Part shown: piece by piece, positions 30,087-33,306 of the stretch
Layout: each line of letters begins with the position of its first letter
Numbering within the stretch: position 1 is the first letter of the stretch
Assembly (NCBI GenBank): GCA_025054935.1
Contig: JANWZD010000003.1
Location: forward strand, 1 to 64,000
Reading direction: 5' to 3'
DNA: 64,000 nucleotides
From: Dehalococcoidia bacterium
Lineage (GTDB): Bacteria; Chloroflexota; Dehalococcoidia; SpSt-223
Made by a program: the position numbers and the translations under genes
Notes under the pieces: generated by a model
Told to the model about the DNA's origin: nothing
What the model saw: the letters and a program-made list of their open reading frames with translations, nothing else
Database searches by the model: none

Positions 30087-31172
30087 GTGCATATCGCGAT
30101 TATTGGTCAGCCGCTGAGCGGCAAGAGCACCGTGTACGAAGCGCTGACCGGCGTGATCAGCGAGCCGGTGGGCAGCGGTCCGCCGCTCAGCGCGGTCAAG
30201 GTGCCGGACCCGCGCTTGGATCGGCTGACCGCGATGTTCCAGCCGAAGCGGAAGGTGCCGGCGGAGATTTCGTTCGCCGATGTGCGCGTTGCCGGCGCGG
30301 CCTTCACCAAGACTGAAGGGCTCTCCGCCGCGTACGTCGAACAAATCGCCAAAGCAGACGCCCTGCTGCTCGTGGTCCGCGCCTTTCCCGACGAGTCGGT
30401 GCCTCACCTTGAAGGCACCATCGACCCCTGGCGCGACCTCGCGACGATGCTGGACGAGCTTGCCTTCACCGACCAGCTGCTTCTCGAGAAGCGCTTGGCG
30501 CGCATTGCCGAGATGGTCGGGAAAGTGAAGCCGGCCGAGCGGGAAGCGATGGAGCGCGAGCGCGCCCTCTTGCGCCGGCTGCTCGACGGGCTCGAGGCGG
30601 GCATGCCGCTTCGCGATCAGCAGCAGGATGAGGACGAACGGAAGCTGACGCGGCACTACCGCTTTCTGACCGCGAAGCCGTTGCTGGTGGTGATCAACCT
30701 CGGCGAGACCCAGCTCGACCGCGCGGCGGCATTCGACGCCGAGCTTGCGGGCCGGCTGCGGGGCGGCGCAGTGCTCGGGGCGAGCATCGCCGGCAAACTC
30801 GAGCGCGAGCTGGTCCAGCTGGAGGGTGCCGAAGCGCGCGAATTCCGCGAAGCGCTCGGCCTCGCTGAGCCGGCGCGAGACCGGATCATTCGCGCCGCCT
30901 ATCGGCTGCTGGGACGGATCTCGTTCTTCACGGTCGGACCAGACGAGTGCCGCGCCTGGACCATCCCCGCGGGGACCCTCGCGCCGCGGGCGGCGGGGGC
31001 GGTTCACAGCGACTTCGAACGCGGCTTCATTCGCGCCGAGGTCGTCCGCTACGAGGATCTCGTGGCGGCGGGCAGCCTCGCCGAGGCGCGCAAGCGCGGT
31101 TTGCTCCGGTCGGAAGGCAAGCAGTATGTCGTCCAAGATGGCGACGTGATCGAGTATTTGTTCAATGTCTAA
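30087..31172 (+). CDS. YchF/Obg-related P-loop GTPase with C-terminal TGS domain
   Basis: 361 residues. IAIIGQPLSGKST is the P-loop, FADVRVAG the switch region, and VVINLGETQLD sits where the YchF nucleotide motif NxxE lies, so ATP rather than GTP may be used. The last ~85 residues, from ISFFTVGPDECRAWTIPAGT to VQDGDVIEYLFNV, form a TGS domain as in YchF. These proteins associate with ribosomes in stress responses. GTG 30087 follows AAAGGGATGA. The end overlaps the next gene by eight bases. Confidence 0.85.
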   Translation: MHIAIIGQPLSGKSTVYEALTGVISEPVGSGPPLSAVKVPDPRLDRLTAMFQPKRKVPAEISFADVRVAGAAFTKTEGLSAAYVEQIAKADALLLVVRAFPDESVPHLEGTIDPWRDLATMLDELAFTDQLLLEKRLARIAEMVGKVKPAEREAMERERALLRRLLDGLEAGMPLRDQQQDEDERKLTRHYRFLTAKPLLVVINLGETQLDRAAAFDAELAGRLRGGAVLGASIAGKLERELVQLEGAEAREFREALGLAEPARDRIIRAAYRLLGRISFFTVGPDECRAWTIPAGTLAPRAAGAVHSDFERGFIRAEVVRYEDLVAAGSLAEARKRGLLRSEGKQYVVQDGDVIEYLFNV

Positions 31173-31668
31173 TCCGGAGAGCGGCTACGATATCCGCCTC
31201 GCCCGTCCTGAAGATGTGCCGCGGCTACGCCAGATCCGCGTCACTGCTGCCAATCCGGAAGGCAAGCCCGGACGGAAAGGCTTTGCCGACGCGATTGACC
31301 GGGGCGAGGTGCTGGTGATGGAGCGCGTCGACGGACGCGGGGAGCCGGAGCTGCTCGGGTTCATCGAGTGGCGCAGCCGGACCGACGGTTCGGTCACGAT
31401 CCGTGATTTTGGCACGGTTGGCGATGCGCCAGAACCGGTCATCATCAAGCGGCTCGTGCGCGAGATGCTGCGCAGCGTGCCGGCGCGTCCCGGCGAAGTC
31501 ACCCTCAAGCTGCGCGCCAACCTCGAGCCGTGGACCTCGATCGTCCAAGAACTGCCTGGCTTCACGGTCAGCGAGCGCGAATTCAGCCGCGGCGTCTGGT
31601 GGACGATCTGGGTGTGGACGGGGGAGCCGCCGCCGCGCCGTCCTGAGCGCGCTTCCCGCCGCCGCTAG
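31165..31668 (+). CDS. GNAT-like acetyltransferase
   Basis: 167 residues. YDIRLARPEDVPRLRQIR is the N-terminal strand-helix of GNAT acyltransferases; ELLGFIEWRSR and SVTIRDFGT fit the central strands. The acetyl-CoA pyrophosphate loop is degenerate, so the call is moderate. It overlaps the YchF-type gene by eight bases and is co-transcribed. The C-terminus is arginine-rich. Confidence 0.6.
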   Translation: MSNPESGYDIRLARPEDVPRLRQIRVTAANPEGKPGRKGFADAIDRGEVLVMERVDGRGEPELLGFIEWRSRTDGSVTIRDFGTVGDAPEPVIIKRLVREMLRSVPARPGEVTLKLRANLEPWTSIVQELPGFTVSEREFSRGVWWTIWVWTGEPPPRRPERASRRR

Positions 31669-31806: not shown

Positions 31807-31837
31807 CGGCCTGAGCGCAAGCAGGCAGGAGGACGCG

Positions 31838-32242
31838 ATGCTCGATCTCGACTTAGCGACGCTGCTGCAGGTGTGGGGAAAGACCGACCGCTCGAAGCCG
31901 CATCCGCGCCCGTTCCATCCGCTCCTCTGCCATCTCATCGATGTCGCGATGGTCGCGCTGGCGCTTTGGGAGGAAGGGCTCACCTCGGCGCGAACCACGT
32001 GGCTCGCCCAAGCGCTTGGTCTCGCGCCGGCCGATGCCGGACGCTGGGTCGCGTTCCTTGCGGGAGTGCATGATCTTGGTAAGGCAACCCCCGGCTTTCA
32101 GGCGAAGGATTCGGGGGGCGAACAGCGTCTCCGCGCCGCGGGCCTCCTCGACGCCGTCGTTGCTGAAGCGCCGCACGGCCTGCTCTCCACCGACCTGCTG
32201 CGCAGGCTGCTGGTCGGGTTGTCCCCACGCACGTGGGGGTGA
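31838..32242 (+). pseudogene. cas3: Type I-E cas3, truncated to part of the HD nuclease domain
   Basis: 134 codons. VWGKTDRSKP near residue 12 and HPLLCHLIDVAMVALALW match the start of type I-E Cas3 (the W-G-K-S/T motif and first HD histidine), and FLAGVHDLGKATPGFQAK is the HD motif with catalytic His-Asp. A full Cas3 would continue with the rest of HD and a superfamily 2 helicase, about 750 more residues; here the frame runs into a CRISPR repeat at 32218 and stops at the TGA within it. A promoter and a very good ribosome site (AGGAGGA) are intact, so a short product may be made, but it cannot unwind DNA. No other cas gene is in the window. Confidence 0.8.
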
Positions 32243-32246
32243 ACCG
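32218..32246 (+). CRISPR. Single type I-E CRISPR repeat (29 bases), no array
   Basis: The 29 bases have the type I-E layout: a GTTGT lead, a perfect CCCCACG/CGTGGGG stem with a CA loop, and the GGGTGAACCG 3' handle. I found no second copy or spacer in the window. It lies exactly between the cas3 remnant and the start-less ABC ATPase gene; its internal TGA ends the cas3 frame. Confidence 0.75.
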
Positions 32247-32293
32247 CGGTCGATGGCCACGGCCTCGTCATCCGCTACGCGGCTCGGCTTGCC

Positions 32294-33025
32294 TTGCATG
32301 ACGTCTCGGTCCGGCTGCGAGAACGCGCAATCACGGCGCTCGTCGGGCCAAACGGCTCGGGGAAGTCGACGCTGCTGCGGACGATGGCGCGCCTCCTTCA
32401 GCCAGAACGCGGGGTCGTGCTGCTCGACGGCCGCGCGATCACCTCTCTCCCGACCCGCGAGGTCGCCCGCCGCCTCGGGGTTCTGCCCCAAGCGCCATCT
32501 GCGCCGGCCGGCCTGACAGTCCGCGAACTGGTCGAGCAGGGGCGTTTCCCCTACCTCGGCCCCCTTCGGCTGCCGGGTGCGCGCGACCGCGAGGCAGTTG
32601 ACCGAGCGCTCGAGATGACGGAACTGACCGCCTTTGCCGACCGGCCGCTCGACACCCTGTCCGGCGGAGAGCGGCAGCGGGCGTGGATCGCGCTCGTCCT
32701 CGCGCAGGATCCTGCCGCCCTCTTGCTCGATGAGCCGACGACCTATCTCGACATCGAGCATCAGCTCCAGGTGCTCCAGCTGCTGCGGCGGCTGCCGGAG
32801 GAGCGGGGCATGACCATTGCCGTTGTGCTCCATGATCTCAATCACGCGAGCCGCTTCGCTGACCGGATTGTCGTCCTTCAGGAGGGCAGGGTCGTAACGG
32901 AAGGGCCGCCCGAGACGGTCGTCACCGCTGAGGTGCTCGCGCAGGTGTTTCGCGTCCGGGCGCATCTCCTGCACGACCCTGTTTCGGGACGACCGGCGTT
33001 TCTGCCGCTCGCCACGCTCAAGTGA
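32294..33025 (+). CDS. FecE/BtuD-type ABC transporter ATPase lacking its natural 5' end
   Basis: 243 residues from TTG 32294: Walker A LVGPNGSGKSTLLR, Q-loop GVLPQAPSAP, signature TLSGGERQRAWIALVLAQ, Walker B ALLLDEPTTYLDIEHQ and H-loop VVLHDLNHA. This is the iron-siderophore/cobalamin/haem importer ATPase type. Family members begin about 15 residues earlier, and those codons are readable in frame from 32249 (VDGHGLVIRY), but no start codon lies between them and the CRISPR repeat. So the gene lost its first few codons at the repeat junction. No permease or binding protein is adjacent. A shortened protein may be made from TTG 32294 but would lack the first beta strand. Confidence 0.75.
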   Translation: MHDVSVRLRERAITALVGPNGSGKSTLLRTMARLLQPERGVVLLDGRAITSLPTREVARRLGVLPQAPSAPAGLTVRELVEQGRFPYLGPLRLPGARDREAVDRALEMTELTAFADRPLDTLSGGERQRAWIALVLAQDPAALLLDEPTTYLDIEHQLQVLQLLRRLPEERGMTIAVVLHDLNHASRFADRIVVLQEGRVVTEGPPETVVTAEVLAQVFRVRAHLLHDPVSGRPAFLPLATLK

Positions 33026-33229: not shown

Positions 33230-33306
33230 TGGTGGGCGATACTGGGCTCGAACCAGTGACCTCGTCGGTGTGAACGACGCGCTCTGACCAACTGAGCTAA
33301 CCGCCC
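33230..33306 (-). tRNA. tRNA-Val (anticodon CAC)
   Basis: The minus strand folds into a full cloverleaf: acceptor GGGCGGT/ATCGCCC (one G-T pair), D arm GCTC...GAGC, anticodon stem CGTCG/CGACG with loop TTCACAC (anticodon CAC, reading GUG), and T arm ACTGG-TTCGAGC-CCAGT. The 3' CCA is encoded. Length is 77 bases with CCA. Confidence 0.95.

What the first reader, a model, noticed from the sequence alone, without database searches (positions are those of the whole stretch)
31838..32320. Scar of a type I-E CRISPR-Cas locus: cas3 stub - one repeat - headless ABC ATPase
A cas3 reading frame with intact promoter and ribosome site breaks off after the first part of its HD domain, runs directly into a single 29-base type I-E repeat (32218-32246), and the next base begins the beheaded 5' end of a FecE-type ATPase gene that has lost its start codon and transporter partners. 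cas3 stub and ATPase are even in the same frame, separated only by the TGA inside the repeat. Two abrupt joins on either side of exactly one repeat suggest deletion through recombination at the array, an unusual off-target Cas1-Cas2 event, or an assembly join at a repeat.
Basis: partly seen in the sequence, partly recalled or inferred. Interest (0 to 1): 0.8.

Follow-up and report, generated by a model that had tools for sequence, protein, structure and literature searches.

The report
Contig skipping a CRISPR-Cas locus
A bacterial contig jumps from the start of a CRISPR immune gene, through one leftover CRISPR repeat, into a transporter gene that has lost only its start codon; most of the missing CRISPR genes lie on other small contigs of the same genome, so this is an ordinary lost or mis-assembled CRISPR locus and not a new system.

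Summary
Window 31838-32217 encodes the first ~126 residues of a type I-E Cas3. A 29-nt repeat follows (32218-32246), then a FecE-like ATPase frame lacking a start codon. "Scar with a lost cas3" needs correcting. In the same 93-contig draft genome, the end of a 3.2-kb contig (C33) carries the next part of cas3. In homologous Cas3 genes those two points lie 12-42 nt apart (median 30). C33 then enters cas8e. A 4-kb contig (C31) carries cas11-cas7-cas5-cas6-cas1-cas2 and an array with exactly this repeat. Contig C3 therefore skips a type I-E locus that the assembly largely still holds. Both flanks are collinear in two same-genus genomes, so the join is local and deletion-like, not a junction of distant loci. 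The transporter gene has lost essentially only its start codon; the repeat end GTGAACCG nearly equals the GTGACC start of its orthologue, which hints at microhomology. I favour a real deletion allele in a mixed population (~0.5) over an assembly or amplification misjoin (~0.4). Reads are needed to decide. There is no evidence for an off-target Cas1-Cas2 event. CRISPR-Cas loss by deletion is well known, so interest is low.

The parts
31165..31668 (+). left flank: conserved small gene, acetyltransferase-like by eye (no Pfam or NCBIfam hit); collinear in both same-genus genomes
31827..31832 (+). AGGAGG ribosome-binding site of cas3
   Evidence: read directly from the sequence
31838..32217 (+). 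5' part of type I-E cas3 (first ~126 codons, first half of the HD domain)
   Evidence: PF18019 E 3.3e-28, positions 1-113; 37-52% identity to Cas3 of complete I-E loci such as L077 and L069
32218..32246 (+). single 29-nt type I-E CRISPR repeat, in the orientation of the cas operon; ends the cas3 frame with an in-frame TGA
   Evidence: identical to both repeats of contig C31
32247..33025 (+). FecE-type ABC ATPase gene lacking its start codon
   Evidence: 73% identical to G001:C168:2984-3748
33230..33306 (-). right flank: tRNA-Val (CAC), followed by a photolyase gene; collinear in both same-genus genomes

Best explanation
This chromosomal position holds (or held) an ordinary type I-E CRISPR-Cas locus: cas3-cas8e-cas11-cas7-cas5-cas6-cas1-cas2-array. 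Contig C3 carries a deletion allele in which everything from cas3 codon ~127 to a repeat of the array is gone, and everything between that repeat and the start of the transporter ATPase is gone too, leaving one repeat between the two joins. The cas-gene pieces on C33 and C31 are the non-deleted version from other cells of the same source population. Shown: the parts, the homology, the continuation on C33, and the collinear flanks. Inferred: that the deletion exists in real molecules, that short direct repeats mediated it (GTGAACCG of the repeat against GTGACC at the ATPase start; GTTG at the cas3 side), and that it inactivates CRISPR interference from this locus.
For: The next part of cas3 (HD positions 121-207, helicase) starts at the very end of C33, 12-42 nt (median 30) beyond the C3 stub when mapped on 30 homologous Cas3 genes. 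C31 holds the other I-E genes and the same repeat. Left and right flanks of C3 are collinear and 7-9 kb apart in G001 and G002, so the join is local. G001 has a solitary cas6e, 52% identical to the C31 one, directly after the same left-flank gene. The repeat end matches the expected ATPase start almost exactly. The locus is broken at least twice in unique sequence within ~8 kb, against one contig per ~38 kb overall, as expected of a lower-copy variant. A 29-nt repeat alone cannot create the cas3|repeat contact in a graph assembly; some molecule or read with that contact is needed (general knowledge).
Against: No reads available. C33 begins within ~30 nt of the join, which a plain contig break would also give. 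C33's cas3 has its own ~57-nt gap and frameshift, so this region may be poorly assembled. The undeleted sequences at both joins are unknown, so microhomology is a guess. Both joins sit at the repeat edges, which needs two separate events or luck.
Confidence: 0.5

Rival explanations
1. Assembly or amplification artefact: the organism has an undeleted cas3, C33 and C31 follow C3's left part directly, and the join cas3-repeat-ATPase was made by the assembler, a gap filler or a chimeric amplified molecule at the CRISPR repeat.
For: C33 resumes cas3 about 30 nt after the stub. The end of C33 is a GC-only palindromic stretch (GCGGCCGCGGCC), prone to drop-out. Contig ends share no overlap. C33 has another internal gap. 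Local assembly errors lacking any read support, and failures at repeats, are documented for MAGs (PMC7111523).
Against: Flanks are collinear in relatives. Neither cas3 nor the ATPase is known to touch a repeat in an undeleted version, so two false contacts would be needed.
Confidence: 0.4
2. One deletion only: the array naturally ends beside the ATPase, whose start had been lost earlier, and a single deletion runs from cas3 to the last repeat.
For: Needs one new join; the repeat has the orientation of the cas operon.
Against: An array ending exactly at codon 2 of an otherwise intact ATPase frame would be odd, and the frame shows no decay over ~258 codons. The far end of the array was not seen (C31 stops in spacer 2).
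Confidence: 0.07
3. Atypical Cas1-Cas2 reaction: the integrase joined chromosome ends to both edges of one repeat.
For: Cas1-Cas2 acts at both edges of a repeat (established knowledge), and both joins lie at those edges to within the resolution set by unknown parental sequence.
Against: Normal integration puts DNA between two repeats and duplicates the repeat; one repeat between two unrelated broken genes is not the expected product. There is no second repeat, no spacer and no target duplication. Ordinary end joining explains the same structure.
Confidence: 0.03

Closest known systems
Type I-E CRISPR-Cas loci of Chloroflexota and other bacteria (e.g. L077, L072, L104)
   Same: Gene order cas3-cas8e-cas11-cas7-cas5-cas6-cas1-cas2-array, 29-nt repeat with a GTCCCCACGCACGTGGGGG-type core, 61-nt period, array 1-30 nt after the cas2 stop in many cases
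   Different: Here the locus is split over three contigs, and contig C3 skips everything between cas3 codon ~127 and one repeat
CRISPR-Cas loss by deletion within populations (S. epidermidis RP62a escapers, PMC3784566)
   Same: Partial or complete loss of the locus in a fraction of cells
   Different: Those deletions (66-306 kb) were mediated by IS elements, homologous regions or cassette excision; here neither is seen, and one repeat stays between the joins
Local assembly errors and misjoins in metagenome-assembled genomes (PMC7111523)
   Same: Abrupt join in coding sequence, with the continuation found on another contig
   Different: Cannot be shown here without reads

Membership tests
Type I-E CRISPR-Cas system (locus as a whole: C3 + C33 + C31) | Signature effector genes cas8e (cse1), cas11 (cse2), cas7e, cas5e, cas6e | tested here: met
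   TIGR02547, TIGR02548, TIGR01869, TIGR01868, TIGR01907 all above cut-off; cas8e and cas11 are incomplete at contig ends
Type I-E CRISPR-Cas system (locus as a whole: C3 + C33 + C31) | Cas1e and Cas2e of the E. coli type | tested here: met
   TIGR03638 379 bits, TIGR01873 79 bits
Type I-E CRISPR-Cas system (locus as a whole: C3 + C33 + C31) | Array of ~29-nt palindromic repeats with ~32-nt spacers next to cas2 | tested here: met
   two 29-nt repeats, one 32-nt spacer and part of a second on C31
Type I-E CRISPR-Cas system (locus as a whole: C3 + C33 + C31) | Complete Cas3 (HD plus helicase) in one open frame | tested here: inconclusive
   HD start on C3, HD end plus helicase on C33 with a ~30-nt unseen gap and a further ~57-nt gap with frameshift
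CRISPR-Cas loss by deletion | Deletion junction present in DNA molecules of the organism | not testable with these tools
   No reads are held; only assembled contigs
CRISPR-Cas loss by deletion | Flanks collinear with undeleted relatives | tested here: met
   G001 and G002 keep both flanks in order, though neither has this I-E locus complete at the site
Cas1-Cas2 off-target integration | Inserted spacer with duplicated target or repeat | tested here: not met
   one repeat, no spacer, no duplication at 32190-32300

The most novel reading that the evidence does not exclude
The two joins, both at repeat edges, arose by an atypical Cas1-Cas2 reaction or by another repeat-edge-specific process that removes CRISPR-Cas loci and leaves exactly one repeat.
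Probability: 0.03. Interest if true: 0.7.

Novelty: new member of a known kind. Interest (0 to 1): 0.15.

Why it matters
If the deletion is real, it is one natural example of a CRISPR-Cas locus in the act of being lost in part of a population, with a recognisable mark (one repeat between a cas3 start and another gene). If it is a misjoin, it warns that 'cas3 stub plus one repeat' in a draft genome should not be read as CRISPR loss before the other contigs are searched. Either way, an annotation saying that this organism lost this type I-E system would be wrong as it stands.

Tried and rejected
A random chimera of distant loci: rejected because both flanks are collinear in two same-genus genomes. 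The cas2|repeat contact on C31 as a second abnormal join: rejected, since in this lineage arrays commonly start 1-30 nt after the cas2 stop. A link between spacer 1 of C31 and the cas3 end (GACxTGCTGCGCAGG): 4 of 20000 random window 34-mers score as high and an equal hit lies elsewhere in the window, so it is treated as chance. Spacer 1 has no exact match in viral contigs. Contig-end overlaps as a clue to the assembler: none found for C31/C33. Contigs under 3 kb are masked as N, so the missing ~940 nt of cas8e/cas11 and any permease pieces could not be looked for there. One paper search gave nothing that I used.

Full report
What is there. The window is G000:C3:1-64000 of a draft genome of 3,574,269 bases in 93 contigs (96.8% complete, 3.9% contaminated). 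After a conserved small gene (31165-31668, acetyltransferase-like by eye; no family hit) and an AGGAGG site, an ATG at 31838 opens a frame that matches the first half of the Cas3 HD domain (PF18019 E 3.3e-28, profile 1-113). At 32218 a 29-nt type I-E repeat begins. The cas3 frame stops at the TGA inside it. Directly after the repeat, in the same frame by chance, lies a FecE-type ABC ATPase that runs to 33025 with no start codon before TTG 32294.

The rest of the locus is in the assembly. The repeat occurs elsewhere only on contig C31 (twice). C31 (4060 bp, all on its minus strand) encodes, in order, the end of Cse2/Cas11, then Cas7e, Cas5e, Cas6e, Cas1e, Cas2e, then repeat-spacer-repeat. Contig C33 (3202 bp) carries at its very end Cas3_HD positions 121-207, continues (on its minus strand) through the Cas3 helicase and runs out in cas8e. 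Mapped on 30 homologous Cas3 genes, the end of the C3 stub and the start of the C33 piece lie 12-42 nt apart, median 30. So C33 most likely continues the cas3 begun on C3. Between C33 and C31 about 940 nt of cas8e/cas11 are unseen, judged on L077; contigs under 3 kb are masked and may hold them.

Quality of those pieces. The C33 cas3 lacks about 19 residues around the region RGxYxALPTQATSNQM found in the compared relatives, with a frameshift. This is either a real lesion or another sign of poor assembly. C31's genes are intact apart from the cut cas11, and the direct contact of cas2 with the first repeat is normal: in many relatives the array starts within 1-30 nt of the cas2 stop.

The right-hand join. 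The ATPase has a 73% orthologue in same-genus genome G001 (C168), where it starts GTGACC and overlaps the end of a FecCD permease; an M48-like peptidase gene, read by eye, follows it. Aligned residue by residue, the window's frame matches it back to residue 2 (T), encoded by ACC; the last four bases of the repeat are ACCG. So only the start codon is lost, and the repeat end GTGAACCG is close to the expected gene start: a possible short direct repeat that mediated the join (inference). The nearest relative of the missing permease in the searchable contigs is 37% identical and has its own ATPase.

The join is local. In G002 and G001 the left flank and the tRNA-Val/photolyase right flank are collinear, 7-9 kb apart. 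G001 carries a solitary cas6e, 52% identical to the C31 one, directly after the left-flank gene, while its other I-E genes lie elsewhere (C146). G002 has a divergent I-E locus with a long array on another contig. This position has therefore probably hosted this I-E lineage in the genus, and the C3 structure looks like a deletion within one neighbourhood.

Deletion or artefact? For a real deletion in a mixed population: the collinear flanks; a 29-nt repeat cannot by itself make the cas3|repeat and repeat|ATPase contacts; and the locus is broken at least twice in unique sequence within ~8 kb in an assembly with one contig per ~38 kb, as a lower-copy variant would be. For an artefact: C33 resumes within ~30 nt of the stub, its end is a GC-only palindromic stretch, C33 has a further internal gap, no overlaps link the contigs, and local assembly errors without read support are known in MAGs (PMC7111523). 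I put ~0.5 on the deletion allele, ~0.4 on the artefact, ~0.07 on one deletion beside a natural array end, and ~0.03 on an atypical Cas1-Cas2 event.

Comparison with the known. The whole is a type I-E CRISPR-Cas locus by every signature gene tested, except that Cas3 could not be shown in one open frame. Loss of CRISPR-Cas loci by deletion within populations is well documented (S. epidermidis RP62a, PMC3784566), though there it was mediated by IS elements, homologous regions or cassette excision. Nothing here requires a new kind of system.

Noticed in passing
L017 (G000:C25:1-9194): A second type I-E locus with a different repeat (GGTCTCCCCCGCGCACGCGGGGATCGACC), a full-length cas3 frame and a protoheme farnesyltransferase-like fragment (by eye) at one contig end; possibly contamination of the bin.
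   Followed up: partly
L018 (G000:C19:577-8219): A type I-C CRISPR-Cas locus (cas3, cas8c, cas7c, cas1c) in the same genome, so CRISPR immunity is not absent from this organism.
   Followed up: partly
L067:2465-3181 (G001:C411): A solitary cas6e at the same chromosomal position in a same-genus genome, with no array or other cas gene found next to it.
   Followed up: partly
L016 (G000:C33), reverse-complement position ~540: Internal gap of ~57 nt with a frameshift in the cas3 helicase part, relative to all compared homologues.
   Followed up: partly
L005:52-83 (C31 spacer 1): Spacer TACTATTGACATGCTGCGCAGGGTGGTTATAA resembles the last bases of the cas3 stub (17 of 18, less two mismatches) and contains TTGACA and TATAAG 16 nt apart; the similarity is judged to be chance.
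   Followed up: partly
L072, L076, L096, L104, L141 and others: In this I-E lineage the array often starts only 1-30 nt after the cas2 stop, leaving almost no room for a separate leader; the leader may overlap the end of cas2.
   Followed up: no
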